The notes beneath the pieces are model-generated. The model did not search any database and was not told the DNA's origin. It saw nothing but the letters and a program-made list of their open reading frames with translations. This document shows positions 27,034 to 35,438 of a stretch of 38,634 bases of DNA, piece by piece. Within the stretch, counting starts at the first letter, position 1. Every line of letters starts with the position of its first letter. The stretch is taken from IMG/VR virus record IMGVR_UViG_3300005294_000057, positions 1 to 38,634 of that record; one strand, written 5' to 3'. Made by a program: the position numbers and the translations under genes. Source of the stretch: a virus.

Positions 27034-29079
27034 TTACGCTGCCGGACGCTTGAACGGCCAAGAGTCGTTGATGGTGTCGGCGAAGTAGTAGCCCGAAGCC
27101 GGCTCAGCGTAGATGGTCACAGACTCACCCGGGTCCAGAGCCGTCATAGCACCAGCAGAGATGGTGGTTCCACCAGGAGCGTCCTTGTAGACCACACCAG
27201 TAACGGTCGGGATCGTCACCACACCAGTCGAACTGACGAAGGACGGCTTAGTTGGGGTGGCCAGAACGTTGGTAGAGGTCGTCTTACGAATGACCAGAGC
27301 AGTCTTCAGCTTCGTCAGGGCACCCGAAAGGCGGGTCTCCATCAGATACTTGTACTGGTTGTAGTCGATATCGAAGTCGTCGAATGAGGTGATCTCGCCA
27401 CCCTTGTTCGTACCGATGTTGTAATCGAACAGGTTGACAATGATACCAACAAGATCCGCGATCTCATTCATGGGCTCGACAGTGACGACCTGATCCACAC
27501 CAAGAGCCTCAGCAACCTGAGCATTCGAGGTGTAAAGACGCCGACCATCGGCATCACGAGCCTTCTTAAACTTGTTCAACTCACGAATAGTCGTGAAGAA
27601 CGTGGGGGTACCAGTACCCTTCCAGTACTCCATGCCATCCATGACTGCATCCACGATCTCCTCATAGCTGGAGCTCGCGTCACCAACGTTCACAAACAAC
27701 GTGGTCGTGTAGAACTCGTGATCGTTGATGATCGAACGAATACCAGGACCACTAGAAGCACCCATAGGGTCCTTCACCTTGTCGTTGTCAGAAACGTCAC
27801 GACCATCGCCGATAAGGATGGCTCGTGCAATTTCCTCCTCAAGCATCAAACGCATTTCGCCCATGAGCCACATAACAACATCGAAATCGCTGATGTCGAG
27901 AATATCATCGCGATCCAAAGACTGCTTCTTATAGATCGTGGTGGGGTCGGTGGATCGCTTACTAACACCGATCCACTCTTCCTTCTTCATATTACCCTTG
28001 ATGTAACCCTTTGCGCGGGCTTCATCCTGAGTAATGTCGGCGGAGATCGTCTTGATGCGAGCAAAGGGGGTCTTGTGAACCGAACCCAAAACGCGGGACA
28101 CCCACTCGGTGCGCCGCTTGTCGAACTCTGGAGTGGTAGAAAGAGTCTTAGCGTCCGGGAAGAGAACCTCAATATCCTCGATGCCGTGCTGAAGACCACG
28201 CTCGTTCACAAAGGCATACACGGCCTCCTTGAAGGAGCCACACTTCTTGCCGTGCTCGAAAATACCCTTGATGTCATCGTGGGTGATCACGGTCTTCTTG
28301 TCAGAGTCAGTCTTGCTCTGATCGAAAATGTTACGGGTAGTACCCATGTCGTCAATACCTTCCTTGTGAGCGAGACTGTTCTCTTCCGGATTTTTCTCGG
28401 AATGAGTGACATCGTCCTTTGTCTTTACCTCATCGAGAGCAACGTTGAGCATGTAATCAAAGAGACCTTGCTGTTTGGGAGTCAGGGTGTCAAATACATC
28501 CTGAAGAGTTTCCTCTTTCCCATCCGCATGTTCGACAACCTCATCCTGATCATTATCGGAATCGTTGTCCTCTTCGTTTTCGTCCTCAGGAGAAGCATCC
28601 TCCTCCGAGTGAGCCAAAGAATCGAAAGGAATACCCATCGAAATGATGACTTCATCCTCGAGTTCTGTAACCAAACCATCACCATGAGCAAGATTAACGT
28701 TATCAATCTTTGCGCCAGAATTAGCGCCGGCAATCACCAAACTGAGCTCTTTGATAAACCCATGGAAGACCTTCTTAGATCTTTCCACCAACTGATTAGC
28801 ATAGATGGAGAGAGAATCAACATCTCCATTCTGCACCATCTTCTTAGCAGATCGACCCTGTGGAGTATCATTAAGATATCCATAAGAATAGACACCATCG
28901 GGGCGAGCTTCTAGAACAGCATGACCGAGAACTTGCTCGATGTCGTTATGCACGTGCTGCCAGACCAGCGGAACCTTCACCTTATCCATATGCTTAAAAG
29001 CATCCGGCATGATAGTTCGACCGTCGGAACACTCAATATTGGTCTTCGTGGCGTAACCGCTAAAATCCGGATCTACCAT
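27034..29079 (-). CDS. prohead protease / major capsid protein fusion
   Basis: 681 aa. Residues 1-125 form an HK97-type prohead protease with WQHVH (His42/His44) and DSLSIYA (Ser89/Ser91) as the likely catalytic sites. Residues 130-245 are very acidic, with repeats around SLAH and a TLTPKQQGLFDYML helix, and probably act as scaffold. From about 246 comes the HK97-fold capsid protein (EFDKRRTEWVSRVLGSVHK, LDISDFDVVMWLMGEM, YLMETRLSGALTK). Residues about 605-681 are an Ig-like domain shared with the tail tube protein. Self-cleavage after assembly is expected. AAGGGGAAGG precedes the ATG. Confidence 0.9.
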   Translation of the reverse strand: MVDPDFSGYATKTNIECSDGRTIMPDAFKHMDKVKVPLVWQHVHNDIEQVLGHAVLEARPDGVYSYGYLNDTPQGRSAKKMVQNGDVDSLSIYANQLVERSKKVFHGFIKELSLVIAGANSGAKIDNVNLAHGDGLVTELEDEVIISMGIPFDSLAHSEEDASPEDENEEDNDSDNDQDEVVEHADGKEETLQDVFDTLTPKQQGLFDYMLNVALDEVKTKDDVTHSEKNPEENSLAHKEGIDDMGTTRNIFDQSKTDSDKKTVITHDDIKGIFEHGKKCGSFKEAVYAFVNERGLQHGIEDIEVLFPDAKTLSTTPEFDKRRTEWVSRVLGSVHKTPFARIKTISADITQDEARAKGYIKGNMKKEEWIGVSKRSTDPTTIYKKQSLDRDDILDISDFDVVMWLMGEMRLMLEEEIARAILIGDGRDVSDNDKVKDPMGASSGPGIRSIINDHEFYTTTLFVNVGDASSSYEEIVDAVMDGMEYWKGTGTPTFFTTIRELNKFKKARDADGRRLYTSNAQVAEALGVDQVVTVEPMNEIADLVGIIVNLFDYNIGTNKGGEITSFDDFDIDYNQYKYLMETRLSGALTKLKTALVIRKTTSTNVLATPTKPSFVSSTGVVTIPTVTGVVYKDAPGGTTISAGAMTALDPGESVTIYAEPASGYYFADTINDSWPFKRPAA

Positions 29080-29119: not shown

Positions 29120-29704
29120 TCAGAGCCGGGTTCTATTGACGGGCCTCACTGCTGGGGCGGCAAGTTTCTCCCGCATGTCTTTGATCTTCTGAGCAACAGA
29201 TTTAATTTGACTGTCCAAAGTCTTCACCTGTTTGTCAAGAATTTCATCTTTGTGTTTCTCATAGTAATCCTGCTGAGCTTTGGCCTTATCGGCTTTTTGC
29301 TTATCAGTCAACTTAGAAGTTGAAGAACGTCTAGTCGAAGTCTTCTCATCTTTGTTATCCGATTCTTTCACACCACTACGAGCCTTAGCTTGCTCTACTA
29401 GTTGAGCAAGAATTTCTTTGAGTCGAGCCAAACGCCCTTTAAGTTCTTCAACCTTTGCTTCCACTTCTTTACGTCTTTGTGCCGGATCCTTTTTAGGAAT
29501 CAGCTTTTTAGTAGAAGGTAAAGTCGAAATCTTCTGTGAAGTTTTCGAAGTGGAACGTTTAGGCAGAGGTTTCTTTACTGCGGTAGGTTTTCGACCGAGA
29601 AGTTCTCTTTCACGAAGATAACGTTCTCTTCGTTCGGCAGGATCGTATCCTACAGTCTGATAATGTTTAATACAGTCGTGAACGAATTCCTCAAGCAGTG
29701 GCAT
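29120..29704 (-). CDS. coiled-coil head assembly protein
   Basis: 194 aa; ATG at 29704 with GGAG 7 nt upstream, overlapping the portal stop by 14 nt. The N-terminus PLLEEFVHDCIKHYQTVGYD and a basic helix RRERYLRERELLGRK are followed by a Lys/Ser/Thr-rich linker and a long coiled coil (RRKEVEAKVEELKGRLARLK onwards). Position between portal and protease/capsid suggests a head assembly or scaffolding helper. The strongly basic composition would also allow DNA binding. Confidence 0.7.
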   Translation of the reverse strand: MPLLEEFVHDCIKHYQTVGYDPAERRERYLRERELLGRKPTAVKKPLPKRSTSKTSQKISTLPSTKKLIPKKDPAQRRKEVEAKVEELKGRLARLKEILAQLVEQAKARSGVKESDNKDEKTSTRRSSTSKLTDKQKADKAKAQQDYYEKHKDEILDKQVKTLDSQIKSVAQKIKDMREKLAAPAVRPVNRTRL

Positions 29705-31004
29705 TTTCCAACTCCTTAAGAACCCCATCAAGCTCTGTACCTAAAGAATCAAGCATCGATTGAACTTGATTATCTTCAGAGACTTGTTCTTCATTTGTCG
29801 ATTCTATACCAAGAGCTGATTGAGGCATATTGCTATTGCGAAGTTGGTCTGCTTTAGGATCTTGTGAGGGTTTGAACCCAATCCCTTGTCGAATCTCGTT
29901 TGAAGACAGAATCTCATTACGAGTGAACTTATCGGCAATTTCAGCGATCTGACTCAGGGGCACATAACTGAAAGCGTCACGGAAGAATGCAATGGACTGC
30001 CCTTGAGTAATGGCCGTTCTGGTCAAGAACTTACGTTTCATACTTTCAGCAATAGCCGTCAAGAAAGGTTTAACCGTTCGGTTATTGTAGTTAAGCATGG
30101 TGGCTTCATCTGCCGTACCATTCATTACTTCCGCTGTCAAACCCAACTGAACATAAAGCAGATTGGTAAGATATTCAATTTGCTTAAGAAGATTGTTTTC
30201 AGCAGGTCGGTTAAGCTGAGTAACTTTCTCCGTACCGTCTGTATAAGCAATACCGTATTTGCTACCTTTAAGCTGATTTTCAATATCAGTTCTTCGCTGC
30301 ATTGCCTGCTGACGACGAGCGTCAGATCTCACCACATACGGCAACTGAATGATGAGATCTAGCTTTCCGGAACTGCTTTGATCATCCACTGCATCCAAAA
30401 GATTCAGTTTATGAATCAGTCGTTTCAAGGTAGAGTTTGGTTCGTTCATCACCGCATAGAAAGGATTTTCTACGATAGCGACAAGTTTTTTGCTTACTGT
30501 GATCTGTTCCTCTTGTCCAACCTGTTCGTTATAGACTTTAATAGTCACAAACTCGCTGGAACCTCGAGGATAGCTGACAACTTTGCCCACTCGAAGATTT
30601 TTAATGTCATAACTACCACTTTCAGGATCGATGGTGGTTTCAACCGGAACAATGACCGCCTCTCCTTCGTCACATAAAGTCAAGACAATGTCTCGACGAA
30701 AATGTGTAGGTGATTGATCAATATTCGGTTCAACAGTTAGACAATAATTCAAACCACTTTTTCGAGTTTCCAGATAACGACCTTCGTTATCTAACTGAAC
30801 ATGTAAAATATCAGCTTCCGCAACATCGATACCCAGACGCGTGAAGATCGAGGCAAGGATGGACCGCTCGTTGGAATATCTAAAGCGTGGTCGGTTGGGA
30901 TGATACCCATATCCACCGCCACTAGAACCGTTGCCACGGAATTCATAAGACTTAGGATCCTTGAAGACGTTCCAAGCGTGCTTAAGGGAATCAATAAAGC
31001 CCAT
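29691..31004 (-). CDS. portal protein
   Basis: 437 aa, start fixed by GGGAAGGAGGTG before the ATG. It starts with a Gly-rich segment and continues with RSILASIFTRLGIDVAEADI, a beta-rich wing region and the C-terminal stem/crown segment EVMNGTADEATMLNYNNRTV and SNEIRQGIGFKPS. These fit HK97/SPP1-type portals, and the gene lies between terminase and capsid as usual. The dodecameric ring would be the DNA gate of the head. The last 40 residues are acidic and likely disordered. Confidence 0.9.
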   Translation of the reverse strand: MGFIDSLKHAWNVFKDPKSYEFRGNGSSGGGYGYHPNRPRFRYSNERSILASIFTRLGIDVAEADILHVQLDNEGRYLETRKSGLNYCLTVEPNIDQSPTHFRRDIVLTLCDEGEAVIVPVETTIDPESGSYDIKNLRVGKVVSYPRGSSEFVTIKVYNEQVGQEEQITVSKKLVAIVENPFYAVMNEPNSTLKRLIHKLNLLDAVDDQSSSGKLDLIIQLPYVVRSDARRQQAMQRRTDIENQLKGSKYGIAYTDGTEKVTQLNRPAENNLLKQIEYLTNLLYVQLGLTAEVMNGTADEATMLNYNNRTVKPFLTAIAESMKRKFLTRTAITQGQSIAFFRDAFSYVPLSQIAEIADKFTRNEILSSNEIRQGIGFKPSQDPKADQLRNSNMPQSALGIESTNEEQVSEDNQVQSMLDSLGTELDGVLKELENATA

Positions 31005-31040: not shown

Positions 31041-32795
31041 TTATTCGAACGCCTCCTTGTTGATCTTGTATGCAATCCAGGCATCCATCAAAGCAGCAAC
31101 GTTGTCGATCTTTTCTTCGTAACGCTTCTTCCAAAGTTTTCGATTACCGTTGGTATCCTCAAGAGTGATGGCGTTACCCATGGCAAAAGACATAAGTTTC
31201 TCGTCAAATATAAGAAATTTTTGTTCACTAAGAGTTTTTAACTCGCCCAAAGGAACCGATTCAGTTCGAGAACCTTGAATGACTTTCTCGATACCGAAAG
31301 GACCGTTATCTTGTTCCCAACGAGTAACAAATTCCTTAGCATTGTATGGGTCAAATCCCAAACACCGTACGTCGTATTCGTGTTCGATGATGAAATCGTC
31401 TAAATCTTCATAAACTTCCATCATATCAAGAATTGTGCCCTCCATGACATGGAGGCTCTTTTCATTGATAAACTCTTCGTATTTCAAACGAGAAGCCGAA
31501 GGAAGTTTCTTTAAAGTCAATGATGTAATGTAGCTTCTAGTCTTCACGCCAAATTTACCATTACGTCCCATGGGGAATAAGAACGTAAAAGCACAGAAGT
31601 CGTCTCCTTGAGAGAGGTCGGCACCCAAAGAACAAGGCATACCATTAAAAGATCGACGACTATGTGGTAATGTTTCCTCATAAGTAAAGAAATATGTGTA
31701 TCCCTCCATAGGGATGCCAAATCTCTTAGCAAGAATATCATTTCTTGCTGCCGGAACCTTTTCGGCTCTCTCAACATCACGCTGATATACATCATAAGAT
31801 ACAGTCAAACCGATGTTTGGATTTGCTTTCGGCCACATTCGAGGATCGGCGACTTCTTTAATATCGTCCAATCGATAGTGCCATATAGAAATTTCAGGCG
31901 CTTCTTGTTCTCCTCGAAGAATTTGCGCCAACTCTATTTTAATACTGTCCCCACTACCATTACGAACAGTTCCTTCAGAACTTACCGCAACGATAAGATA
32001 TTCAGCACCATCTTTACTTGCGCCTTGTTCAATGGCACCGATAACATCTTCTCGAACATCACCGGAAAGCCATTCATCAACCGTAGAATACTTAGGACGA
32101 AGACCTTGAAGTTTATCAATAGACATAGGTCGTATTTCAAGTATGGAATTCGTCAAGAAATTCTCGATCCCTTTTTTAGTGGACACCAATTTCTGGCGCA
32201 AAGATCGAGAACCGGTAGTATTCTGCAAGGAACCTTCAGTAAGGAATTGAAATAACGGCCCTTTAGATCGAACAATTGCCGTTCGAATAGGGGACATCAC
32301 TTCATCAGCTTGTTTCATAGTTGGAGCAACAGTGATTTGTTTAGTAGTATCAGTATCACAGTTGAGAAAATAACTTTGAAGACAAGATTCATAAAGAGAT
32401 TTTGCTGCTCCTCGAGCAACGATGAGATATTGTTTTTTTACTAATCTCTTGAGAACGTATTTCTCTTTAAAAATCCCGCCGAGAGGATGTGATGGGTCAG
32501 AAACATACACCATCTTTTTTACATAGTGATACCAAGACAATAGTTGTTCGGCCCACAATTTAAAAGAGGGAAGAAGAACCAGATCGCCGCCATCGGTTAA
32601 CGTGAGTTCGTTTTCACAAAAAAGAATCCAACCTTCGATGGCTTTATCGTCATAATAGTAACGAGGGTCGGCAATGAGCGCATCGATCCGATTCATCTCC
32701 ATGGAAATTTCCTCGTTGACAGGAATTTCCCCCCGCATTACGGCATTACGGAACATACCGTAATATATTGGAGTTGCCGTATTCGATAGCGCCAT
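31041..32795 (-). CDS. terL: large terminase subunit
   Basis: 584 aa, with a perfect AAAGGAGG ribosome binding site. The ATPase domain has a Walker A-type ARGAAKS (127-133) and Walker B YSTVDEW (237-242, with Asp240/Glu241 catalytic). The nuclease domain begins near GADLSQGDD (391-399) and includes LGFDPYNAKEF and NVAALMDAWIAYK. It pumps DNA through the portal and cuts it. The Walker A is unusual in having Ala-Ala before the Lys, but other terminases of this type vary here. Confidence 0.93.
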   Translation of the reverse strand: MALSNTATPIYYGMFRNAVMRGEIPVNEEISMEMNRIDALIADPRYYYDDKAIEGWILFCENELTLTDGGDLVLLPSFKLWAEQLLSWYHYVKKMVYVSDPSHPLGGIFKEKYVLKRLVKKQYLIVARGAAKSLYESCLQSYFLNCDTDTTKQITVAPTMKQADEVMSPIRTAIVRSKGPLFQFLTEGSLQNTTGSRSLRQKLVSTKKGIENFLTNSILEIRPMSIDKLQGLRPKYSTVDEWLSGDVREDVIGAIEQGASKDGAEYLIVAVSSEGTVRNGSGDSIKIELAQILRGEQEAPEISIWHYRLDDIKEVADPRMWPKANPNIGLTVSYDVYQRDVERAEKVPAARNDILAKRFGIPMEGYTYFFTYEETLPHSRRSFNGMPCSLGADLSQGDDFCAFTFLFPMGRNGKFGVKTRSYITSLTLKKLPSASRLKYEEFINEKSLHVMEGTILDMMEVYEDLDDFIIEHEYDVRCLGFDPYNAKEFVTRWEQDNGPFGIEKVIQGSRTESVPLGELKTLSEQKFLIFDEKLMSFAMGNAITLEDTNGNRKLWKKRYEEKIDNVAALMDAWIAYKINKEAFE

Positions 32796-32810: not shown

Positions 32811-33752
32811 CTATTTCGATCCGATCGCTTTGCTTCCGGCTTCAATGATATGACCATCGACAAATTTATAGCTACTTCGACTCGAAGAAGTTTTTGTCAT
32901 TTTCTGACGGATAAGATGAGAAATAACTTCTTTACCAACTGTGGTCAAAATATCGAGCATGAACTTGCGTCGTTCATCTTTCTTCTTATTCAGCTCACTC
33001 ATCGCTTCGCTGTATTTTTTCTCCATATTCAATCGATTATTCAAAGTTCTCAGTTCGCCATCGCTAAGTGTACGAACTCCACCTCGCTGCGCACGTTTAC
33101 GAAGCTCCGAAACTTTAGAAGAATCTGGAGAGTCTGCCCCACCGCGGAGTTTATCGCGAATGATTCCCCAACGCATTCCTTTGGTACCGAAATGCTCAAG
33201 AATATCTTTAGCGGAGATTTTCCCCATATCACCCATACGAACTTCATCCATTGATTTCTCTACAAGCATGAATTCTGGGCCGGAATAATCTCCTGTCCAC
33301 AAAGCAATGCGATCGAAATTAATCCAACTAATTCCTGGATAATCTCTATCGTCTTGAGGAGCTGGAGAACTTGGATATCCCATAGTCAAATGCGGAGTAA
33401 ATTTAGGGTACTGTGGAACAGAATTATACATTCGATAAAGTTGATCATCCTGAAGAAGATACGACCTGAATTGTTCGAGTTTTTGGAGGTTATAATCCCC
33501 AAAGAACAAGACATCAGCGTTTTCGGGACCAAGAGTTCCACGACGATCAACACTCATGCCAAATTTATAAGGCATGCTGGTGGAAATAACATGCTCAAGG
33601 TATTCAAGAATATGCATTCGTTGTGGATCATCGATTACATCCCCCAAATAACACAAAGTCATATGGGGAATTTTTTCACTTGAAAGCTTCCATACAACAT
33701 CGTCTACCGATGGAATGGCTACAATCACACAAGAGTTTCCCGCGTTATCCAT
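32811..33752 (-). CDS. 2H phosphoesterase-like / virion-motif fusion protein
   Basis: 313 aa, ATG at 33752 with GGAG upstream. The N-terminal domain (about 1-165) has the two signature motifs of the 2H phosphoesterase (LigT-like) superfamily, HMTL (30-33) and HLTM (121-124), spaced by about 90 residues with strand patterns VIVAIP and DRIALW. Residues 187-197 carry HFGTKGMRWGI, a motif seen in many phage head-associated proteins. The remainder is helical and charged. 2H enzymes cleave 2'-5' or cyclic nucleotide bonds; phage members can degrade defence signals. The location between fibre and terminase genes suggests it is packaged in the virion. The substrate is unknown. Confidence 0.78.
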   Translation of the reverse strand: MDNAGNSCVIVAIPSVDDVVWKLSSEKIPHMTLCYLGDVIDDPQRMHILEYLEHVISTSMPYKFGMSVDRRGTLGPENADVLFFGDYNLQKLEQFRSYLLQDDQLYRMYNSVPQYPKFTPHLTMGYPSSPAPQDDRDYPGISWINFDRIALWTGDYSGPEFMLVEKSMDEVRMGDMGKISAKDILEHFGTKGMRWGIIRDKLRGGADSPDSSKVSELRKRAQRGGVRTLSDGELRTLNNRLNMEKKYSEAMSELNKKKDERRKFMLDILTTVGKEVISHLIRQKMTKTSSSRSSYKFVDGHIIEAGSKAIGSK

Positions 33753-33762
33753 GTCTTCTCCA

Positions 33763-35028
33763 TTAAGCTAAAACGAGGAGCGGTATATAGGAATATACAC
33801 TACCTTCAGTACTCGGATCGATAGTTGCTGGGAACTGAGGCGTTCTTGTGGGGGCAACATAGACCCGGCGATGAGTGGTAATATCTCCTCCGTTATAAAC
33901 TGTGGTGAAACCTCCATGGGAAACGTAGAGAATCTCGGCCGAGGCATTTTCTATGGATATACCCACACGAACAAATCTTCCAGAAGATTCGGCTGCTATT
34001 GAAGAAGCCAAACTCTTCATTTTCCAACCGGCAGTCTGCCATAAGTTGTTATCAGTGGCTCCGGTATCTTGGAGAAGAACGCCGGCGTCTGTATATACAG
34101 CAAATCCATTGTAGCCAGAACTCGGAGGGGTTCCGTTGGCGGAGATGATATACAAGCCGACTTTGGAAATGACCTTTCCTGCAGGAACCCACATACGAAC
34201 CATCCAGTTACCCACAGTACTGGATTGATTTGCCGATTCAATCGGTATGCTGGAAGCAATGAATCCATATCCCTCGAGAGGATACACTCCTCCACTAGGC
34301 CCTGGTTCTCCATCGGCACCATCTACACCGTCTGAACCATCGATTCCGTTGGTCCCATTAGTACCGTCGGTTCCGTCCGCCCCGATCAAAGAAGTAAGCC
34401 ATTCAGATTCTGTTCCGATAAAACCATTATTCACGGCCACTTGATATGCAGATATACCTTGTGAACCATCAATACCATCTACACCATCAGAACCTGCTAG
34501 AGAGGTCAACCATTCGGATTCTGTTCCGACAAAACCGTTATTTACAGCTATCTGATAAGCGGAAAGACCTGATTCCCCATCATTTCCGTCTACTCCGTCA
34601 GATCCTATTAAAGAAGCCAACCACTGAGATTCTGTTCCGACAAAACCGTTATTTACAGCTATCTGATAAGCGGAAAGACCTGGAGAACCATTAGTTCCGT
34701 TGGTTCCATTAGTTCCATTAGTTCCGTTGGTTCCGTTGGTTCCATTAGTACCATCGGTTCCCGGCGGACCCACTAAAGAATCAAGCCATTCCTCAACAGT
34801 TCCAACAAAACCATTAGCGACAGCAACTTCATAGGCAGAATCGCCATCAGAGCCCGCACCAGTCAGGTAATCCAAATTTACCCATGTGTTGAGACCATCG
34901 CCAATTTTCAGTTTATTGGTGTCAATTTCAAAGCCAGGCTCTCCCAAAAGAAGTCGTGGATTTTTTGACGTCCAATTAGCAGCAGTGTCTCGACGTAATC
35001 TAAACCTTATTCCTCTTGTAAGATCCAC
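33763..35028 (-). CDS. collagen-like fibre protein with SAYxxAV repeats
   Basis: 421 aa. Residues 5-50 (RFRLRRDTAANW, LLLGEPGFEIDTNKLKIGDG) match the N-terminal domain of phage fibres such as major tropism determinants. Four repeats of SAYxxAVxNGFVGTExEWLxSL start at 64, 119, 156 and 193, separated by collagen-like Gly-X-Y stretches including seven consecutive Gly-Thr-Asn units. Residues about 250-421 form a beta-rich head, perhaps the receptor-binding end. It lies among head genes, so it may be a head fibre rather than a tail fibre. Confidence 0.85.
   Translation of the reverse strand: MDLTRGIRFRLRRDTAANWTSKNPRLLLGEPGFEIDTNKLKIGDGLNTWVNLDYLTGAGSDGDSAYEVAVANGFVGTVEEWLDSLVGPPGTDGTNGTNGTNGTNGTNGTNGTNGSPGLSAYQIAVNNGFVGTESQWLASLIGSDGVDGNDGESGLSAYQIAVNNGFVGTESEWLTSLAGSDGVDGIDGSQGISAYQVAVNNGFIGTESEWLTSLIGADGTDGTNGTNGIDGSDGVDGADGEPGPSGGVYPLEGYGFIASSIPIESANQSSTVGNWMVRMWVPAGKVISKVGLYIISANGTPPSSGYNGFAVYTDAGVLLQDTGATDNNLWQTAGWKMKSLASSIAAESSGRFVRVGISIENASAEILYVSHGGFTTVYNGGDITTHRRVYVAPTRTPQFPATIDPSTEGSVYSYIPLLVLA
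34517..34682. repeat. 111-bp tandem repeat in the fibre gene
   Basis: The 55 bases at 34517-34571 recur exactly at 34628-34682, an offset of 111 bp (37 codons), matching the 37-residue protein period. Further left, 34406-34460 is a diverged third unit. Confidence 0.85.
34686..34756. repeat. 9-bp microsatellite encoding Gly-Thr-Asn
   Basis: Seven in-frame units alternate between two synonymous forms (GGAACCAAC and GGAACTAAT on the minus strand). Loss or gain of a unit would change fibre length by three residues without a frameshift. Confidence 0.75.
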
Positions 35029-35036
35029 AGCTCCTC

Positions 35037-35438
35037 CTAGGAACTTCCACCATCGAGAATAAGATCTCCGATGGGAAGACTTGGTGGATTGGGGTTAACC
35101 CATTCGGTTGTTTCTCGGACAACGTTCATTCTCCAAGCAATCTCGTCAGCACGCTTGTTAAGCGCATCAATCAGATAGCTTGTTTGGGCGGGATCAAAGA
35201 GAAGTTTAACCCGAAGGAAAATATAAGTTTTCGCATCGTTTAAAAGAAGATTATCACCGAGGAATTGGTCCCATGTGGCGGTATCATCCTCGATCATGAA
35301 TCCATTCTCAGGCCCAATACCCAATTGATTCAAGGTGGGAAATACTGAATTAATATGAAGAATTAATTCATCATCGAAGTCCACGTTATCTTCGACCACA
35401 CCAAGCATTTTCTTCACACTAGTCAGGATACTGTTCAC
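35037..35438 (-). CDS. head-tail connector protein
   Basis: 133 aa. The pattern NSILTSVKKMLGVVEDNVDF and DDELILHINSVFPTLNQLGIGP, then KTYIFLRVKLLFDP and a C-terminal NPPSLPIGDLILDG tail, is typical of gp6-like head-tail connectors. Such a gene normally follows the capsid gene. Here it lies upstream of the terminase, between endolysin and fibre, so the neck genes are split between two places. Confidence 0.75.
   Translation of the reverse strand: MNSILTSVKKMLGVVEDNVDFDDELILHINSVFPTLNQLGIGPENGFMIEDDTATWDQFLGDNLLLNDAKTYIFLRVKLLFDPAQTSYLIDALNKRADEIAWRMNVVRETTEWVNPNPPSLPIGDLILDGGSS

What the first reader, a model, noticed from the sequence alone, without database searches (positions are those of the whole stretch)
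32811..33752. 2H phosphoesterase joined to a virion-type motif: possible packaged counter-defence enzyme
HMTL and HLTM with about 90 residues between them are the two catalytic motifs of the 2H superfamily. T4 Acb1, a member of this superfamily, degrades cyclic oligonucleotide signals of CBASS defence. The following HFGTKGMRWG motif occurs in many phage head proteins, and the gene sits between fibre and terminase genes. Inference: the enzyme may travel in the virion and act at the start of infection, against cyclic nucleotide signals or on 2'-5' or cyclic phosphate RNA ends.
Basis: partly seen in the sequence, partly recalled or inferred. Interest (0 to 1): 0.62.

Follow-up and report, generated by a model that had tools for sequence, protein, structure and literature searches.

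The report
Head-tagged 2H phosphoesterase of a phage
This phage gene makes an intact RNA/nucleotide-cutting enzyme joined to a short peptide tag that related phages also put on many other effector-like proteins, so the enzyme probably rides inside the virus head and acts as infection starts.

Summary
ORF 32811-33752(-), 313 aa, is a real gene between a collagen-like fibre gene and TerL. Residues 7-166 form a 2H phosphoesterase: the model matches LigT, CPDase, Usb1 and rotavirus VP3 at VIA-Z about 12-13, and all four catalytic residues are invariant in 83/83 homologues. It is nearer to LigT/VP3 than to Acb1 (Z 8.4; no Acb1 profile hit).

Residues 187-196 (HFGTKGMRWG) are Pfam DUF7211, function unknown. 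My survey suggests DUF7211 is a modular head tag. Related phages carry up to 8 tagged proteins, most often at the N-terminus, fused to glutamine-deamidase-fold toxins, GNATs, an ADP-ribosyltransferase, one portal, and this 2H enzyme. Tags cluster near the terminase-to-capsid genes. In 50,697 phage records the tag follows one capsid type, the protease-major-capsid fusion (234 versus 244 records, near-identical genus counts). Phages with other heads fuse a related 2H domain to MuF instead.

Best reading: a virion-packaged, probably ejected 2H phosphoesterase. Packaging is inferred; substrate unknown (cyclic nucleotide signal or 2',3'-cyclic-phosphate RNA ends). Packaged 2H-MuF/portal fusions were proposed in 2017; I found no paper describing the tag. 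New variant of a known kind.

The parts
32811..33752 (-). whole gene: 2H phosphoesterase - DUF7211 tag - helical tail, 313 aa
   Evidence: homologues; RBS
33255..33734 (-). 2H (LigT-type) phosphoesterase domain, residues 7-166
   Evidence: searches (PF13563, PF02834; block pLDDT mostly 70-90), fold matches
33657..33665 (-). catalytic motif 1, H30-M-T32
   Evidence: H and T invariant 83/83
33384..33392 (-). catalytic motif 2, H121-L-T123
   Evidence: H and T invariant 83/83
33153..33212 (-). DUF7211 (PF23847) head tag; core HFGTKGMRWG at 33165-33194
   Evidence: 29.2 bits, over cut-off; disordered in the model
32814..33152 (-). C-terminal helical tail (helix residues 211-286), conserved R240, L243, E244; shared with pre-TerL tagged proteins that lack 2H
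31041..32795 (-). terminase large subunit, immediately downstream; TerL is directly downstream in nearly all homologous loci
33763..35028 (-). collagen-like tail fibre gene lying between connector and 2H gene
35037..35438 (-). phage connector protein (PF24829; phrog_4247), co-distributed with the tag
29691..31004 (-). portal protein
27034..29079 (-). S78 prohead protease - major capsid protein fusion; co-distributed with the tag among phage records

Best explanation
The gene encodes a catalytically intact 2H (LigT-type) phosphoesterase carried as head cargo. The enzyme domain (residues 7-166) is joined by a flexible segment to a DUF7211 tag (HFGTKGMRWG) and a helical tail. The protein is probably made late from the head/packaging operon. 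The tag or tail is recognised by a component of this capsid type (protease-capsid fusion, portal or connector), so the protein is taken into the procapsid, and it is ejected with the DNA. In the new cell it hydrolyses a nucleotide phosphodiester before phage genes are expressed, most likely a cyclic or 2'-5' nucleotide alarm signal or a 2',3'-cyclic phosphate RNA end. Shown here: fold, intact active site, conserved slot before TerL, tag sharing with other effector-like proteins, co-distribution with one capsid type. Inferred: packaging, ejection, substrate.
For: Fold and active site. TerL was found in 95 of 98 complete 2H ORFs' loci and is directly downstream on the same strand in 94; exact tag in 92 of 98. 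280 tagged ORFs in 127 loci; tag within the first 25 residues in 176 of 254 complete ORFs. Tag partners: Gln_amidase toxin fold 9, GNAT 6, ADP-ribosyltransferase 1, portal 1 of 140; head-morphogenesis and minor-head families 2 each. GNAT stands in place of 2H in the same slot (L074, L127) or beside it (L076). All 219 tagged ORFs lie on the head-gene strand; 94 of 96 tag loci of 5 kb or more contain a homologue of this phage's head genes. In whole genomes, over-cut-off tags lie in a limited region near TerL/portal/capsid. Tag 234, protease-capsid fusion 244 and connector 237 of 50,697 records with near-identical genus counts, while TerL hits 1868. In other head types a related 2H domain is fused to MuF (Beagle gp25, Phinky gp29), a virion head protein (PMC5576092). 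Lactococcus phage 1706 gp07, same slot, two DUF7211 matches, is annotated 'structural protein'.
Against: No proteomics of this phage; no direct evidence of packaging or ejection. Co-distribution may partly reflect common descent of a whole head module, and rests on genus counts, not on a full record-by-record list. The 1706 'structural' label is a deposited annotation that I could not trace to data here. Only about a fifth (14/75) of the pre-TerL slots in tag-selected loci carry 2H, so it is accessory. No substrate data; fold similarity does not separate RNA-end from signal-nucleotide substrates.
Confidence: 0.55

Rival explanations
1. Packaged RNA enzyme rather than signal degrader: the 2H domain processes or cuts RNA (2',3'-cyclic-phosphate ends, tRNA fragments made by host anticodon nucleases, or Usb1-like RNase activity) at the start of infection.
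For: Closest fold matches include LigT, CPDase and Usb1; the only NCBIfam match is TIGR02258 RNA 2',3'-cyclic phosphodiesterase, below cut-off; Iyer et al. 2017 favoured RNase action or 2'-5'A degradation for head-fused 2H domains (PMC5512222).
Against: No RNA ligase or kinase partner seen in the neighbouring genes examined; the 2017 paper says such 2H domains never associate with RNA ligases; rotavirus VP3 PDE, a signal degrader, scores equally.
Confidence: 0.25
2. Assembly protein: tag and helical tail serve head assembly or DNA packaging (scaffold, portal or terminase interaction) and the 2H domain is an auxiliary or passenger; the tag is an assembly motif and not a cargo signal.
For: Nearly always next to TerL; many slot proteins are only tag plus tail; a portal protein carries the tag near its C-terminus (L113).
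Against: The tag sits on up to 8 different proteins per phage locus, several with toxin or effector folds; 2H catalytic residues invariant 83/83; a related 2H domain sits on MuF in other head types.
Confidence: 0.17
3. A late cytoplasmic enzyme acting in the producing cell (RNA turnover or defence signal removal), not packaged.
For: T4 Acb1, a 2H enzyme, is active in the infected cell (PMC9117128).
Against: The conserved head tag and the MuF fusions would be unexplained.
Confidence: 0.08

Closest known systems
2H phosphoesterase-MuF/portal fusions (polyvalent protein theme, Iyer et al. 2017, PMC5512222)
   Same: 2H domain joined to a head-associated protein near late genes; predicted to be injected
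   Different: Here no MuF or portal domain; the carrier is a DUF7211 tag plus helical tail in the slot before TerL
Rotavirus VP3 C-terminal 2',5'-phosphodiesterase
   Same: LigT-like 2H fold (VIA-Z 12.4), a virus-encoded enzyme against a nucleotide alarm; VP3 is a virion protein (own knowledge)
   Different: About 13% identity, eukaryotic RNA virus, no tag; substrate of the phage enzyme unknown
Acb1 anti-CBASS nuclease (T4, FBB1; PMC9117128)
   Same: HxT/HxT tetrad and 2H fold (Z 8.4)
   Different: No PF23474 match; catalytic H spacing 91 versus 69; Acb1 has no tag and is not described as packaged
MuF polymorphic toxins of temperate phages (PMC5576092)
   Same: Head-protein carrier with exchangeable effector domains
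   Different: Carrier is a short peptide tag used on several separate proteins per phage, not one MuF domain
Lactococcus phage 1706 gp07
   Same: Same gene slot before TerL, two DUF7211 matches; annotated structural protein
   Different: No 2H domain
T4 capsid-targeting sequences on internal proteins (own knowledge)
   Same: Short sequence that directs proteins into the head
   Different: Different sequence; whether DUF7211 is cleaved is not known

Membership tests
2H phosphoesterase superfamily | two HxT motifs about 70-100 residues apart | tested here: met
   H30/T32 and H121/T123, 83/83 invariant
2H phosphoesterase superfamily | 2H (LigT-like) fold | tested here: met
   (Z up to 12.8 over 144 residues)
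2H phosphoesterase superfamily | phosphoesterase activity | not testable with these tools
   needs purified enzyme
Acb1 (PF23474) | match to the family profile | tested here: not met
   no match in the window protein at E<=5 nor in the window record at E<=10
Acb1 (PF23474) | C-terminal lid and aromatic base-stacking residues | not tested
   no residue-level superposition was available; fold Z 8.4
RNA 2',3'-cyclic phosphodiesterase LigT equivalog (TIGR02258) | score above the curated cut-off | tested here: not met
   24.9 bits versus 65.7
DUF7211 (PF23847) | score above the Pfam cut-off and HxGxKGMxWG core | tested here: met
   29.2 bits in the six-frame search; 25.7, just under 27, in the whole-protein scan; core present
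MuF head proteins (PF04233) | MuF domain | tested here: not met
   not matched in the window protein; present in Beagle gp25 and Phinky gp29
virion-packaged effector | protein present in purified virions | not testable with these tools
   needs mass spectrometry
virion-packaged effector | ejection into the host cell | not testable with these tools
   needs an infection assay

The most novel reading that the evidence does not exclude
DUF7211 (D/E-x-L-x-H-[YFH]-G-[VIT]-K-G-M-[KR]-W-G-V-R-[RK]) is a dedicated peptide address by which one capsid type, the protease-capsid fusion head, loads a swappable set of several different effector enzymes (2H phosphoesterase, GNAT, deamidase fold, ADP-ribosyltransferase) for delivery with the DNA.
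Probability: 0.5. Interest if true: 0.82.

Novelty: new variant of a known kind. Interest (0 to 1): 0.64.

Why it matters
If right, a widespread group of phages (of Gordonia, Arthrobacter, Streptomyces, Rhodococcus and others) delivers several enzymes per particle through one short tag. That would give a simple sequence rule for finding early-acting phage effectors, including counter-defence enzymes now labelled 'RNA ligase' or 'hypothetical', and a possible way to load chosen cargo into phage heads. It can be tested directly by virion proteomics on cultured phages.

Tried and rejected
Acb1 membership: no profile match. Defence-system family: no PADLOC match. Tag in solved structures: none (only a weak 8-residue chance match). 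Literature on the tag: no paper in the held library contains KGMKWG, GMRWG or DUF7211 in a relevant sense; subscription journals and bioRxiv were not searched. The genome-contig scan gave only tag/tail relatives, no 2H, so the host is not identified. Virion proteomics papers: Thermobifida phage P318 lists a 'phosphoesterase' in its virions but its relation to this gene is unknown; the Gordonia GMA2 paper did virion mass spectrometry but its table is in a supplement I could not read. Families missing from the VIA list are not excluded by it.

Full report
Observation. The ORF 32811-33752(-) encodes 313 aa and has a GGAG ribosome-binding site five bases before its ATG. It lies between a collagen-like fibre gene and TerL. 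HMTL and HLTM are present with catalytic H at residues 30 and 121, and HFGTKGMRWG at 187-196. The window is an IMG/VR virus record. Its TerL is 77% identical to TerL of Gordonia phages such as Conley and Duffington, and its capsid protein is up to 62% identical to that of Streptomyces phages.

The enzyme. Pfam PF13563 and PF02834 and NCBIfam TIGR02258 match below their curated cut-offs; phrog_24711 matches at E 1e-62. An AlphaFold2 model from 12 sequences has confident structure over residues 7-166, a disordered segment 169-208 that holds the tag, and a long helix 231-286 preceded by a shorter one from 211. Foldseek and VIA-align place the domain with LigT, plant CPDase, Usb1, Bacillus YjcG and the rotavirus VP3 phosphodiesterase (Z about 12-13); Acb1 is more distant (Z 8.4). 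The top viral matches include Rhodococcus phage Pepy6 gp013 and a Microbacterium capsid morphogenesis protein. In 83 distinct homologues H30, T32, H121 and T123 never change, while the median column is 58% identical. The active site is therefore conserved as in a working enzyme; no activity was tested.

The slot. Of 98 complete 2H ORFs collected (and phage records), TerL was seen in 95 loci and is directly downstream on the same strand in 94; 92 of the 98 carry the exact tag pattern. Distances of 2H and TerL sequences are correlated (Mantel r 0.39, 0 of 999 permutations as high), which indicates partly shared descent. In loci chosen only by the tag, 14 of 75 pre-TerL slots carry 2H. Other slot proteins are tag plus helix, or tag-GNAT-tag-helix (L074, L127), or 2H-tag-GNAT-tag-helix (L076). 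The 2H domain therefore behaves like an exchangeable module.

The tag. A scan of viral contigs with the tag and a six-frame analysis that also covered the phage records in hand gave 280 tagged ORFs in 127 loci; 176 of 254 complete ORFs have the tag within the first 25 residues, and up to 8 tagged ORFs occur per locus. The consensus is acidic-x-L-x-H-[YFH]-G-[VIT]-K-G-M-[KR]-W-G-V-R-[RK]. Among 140 tagged ORFs without 2H, Pfam finds the Gln_amidase toxin fold in 9, GNAT in 6, ADP-ribosyltransferase in 1 and a portal in 1. Cultured examples are Secretariat gp15 (two tags, GNAT, and a Gln_amidase match just under cut-off) and Schwartz33 gp18 (Gln_amidase, just under cut-off). The tagged portal has its tag near the C-terminus.

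Link to the head. In tag loci of at least 5 kb, 94 of 96 contain a homologue of this window's TerL, portal, connector or protease-capsid fusion, and all 219 tagged ORFs are on the head-gene strand. In whole phage genomes, over-cut-off tags lie only in a limited region around TerL, portal and capsid, for example 15.1-21.5 kb of 78 kb in Poco6. Among 50,697 phage records the tag is found in 234, the protease-capsid fusion in 244 and the connector in 237, with genus counts Arthrobacter 95/95/95, Gordonia 55/55/55 and Streptomyces 54/54/53. TerL, by contrast, is found in 1868. The fused capsid protein of these clusters is known (PMC5513430, PMC5679793); the passages read do not mention the tag. 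Common descent of the head module could explain part of this pattern, but not the spread of the tag over several different proteins in one genome. I compared genus counts, not a complete record list.

Second carrier. Arthrobacter phage Beagle gp25 and Microbacterium phage Phinky gp29 have a related 2H domain fused to MuF and no tag. Gordonia phage GMA2 Orf10, labelled putative structural protein, has a C-terminal 2H/Acb1-like domain. Related enzymes on different head carriers fit head cargo better than an assembly role alone.

Mechanism. Iyer et al. 2017 proposed that 2H domains fused to MuF or portal act as RNases or degrade 2'-5' or cyclic nucleotide alarms, in proteins likely delivered by the virion (PMC5512222). 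Nomburg et al. 2024 show LigT-like PDEs used against nucleotide signals by phages and animal viruses (PMC11410667). I extend the first proposal to a tag-bearing carrier. Packaging, ejection and substrate remain inferred. My estimates: 2H enzyme intact 0.9; virion-associated 0.7; ejected 0.55; acts on a nucleotide alarm rather than RNA ends about 0.5, given ejection.

No supplement could be read. The host is unknown. The 1706 structural label is an annotation.

Noticed in passing
33763-35028: A collagen-like fibre gene sits between the connector and the 2H gene; most homologous loci have connector and 2H adjacent, and a few relatives (L096, L136, L141, L145) show a gap of similar size.
   Followed up: partly
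L113:5124-6575: Portal protein carrying the DUF7211 tag at residue 427 of 484.
   Followed up: partly
L218:7981-10632 (Gordonia phage GMA2 Orf10): 883-aa putative structural protein with a C-terminal Acb1/2H-like domain just after a portal-sized gene.
   Followed up: partly
L088:1057-6834 (76,797-base record, the size of ReqiPepy6): Seven consecutive tagged ORFs of unknown cargo; the six scanned show no significant Pfam domain beyond the tag.
   Followed up: partly
W01:56395, G001:73558, W03:74820, W09:40551, G003:30074: Weak sub-cut-off partial tag hits (profile positions 5-13) in ORFs of 888-965 aa away from the main tag cluster, in five phages.
   Followed up: no
L212, L216: Tag plus tail plus TerL on contigs binned as a Thermoplasmata archaeon and a Bacteroidota MAG; may be misbinned phage contigs.
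   Followed up: no
PMC6893835 (Thermobifida phage P318): Virion mass spectrometry lists a phosphoesterase among virion-associated proteins; not known to be 2H.
   Followed up: no
29120-29731: Coiled-coil-like protein of unknown function (phrog_12541) between portal and protease-capsid fusion; a candidate scaffold or tag receptor.
   Followed up: no
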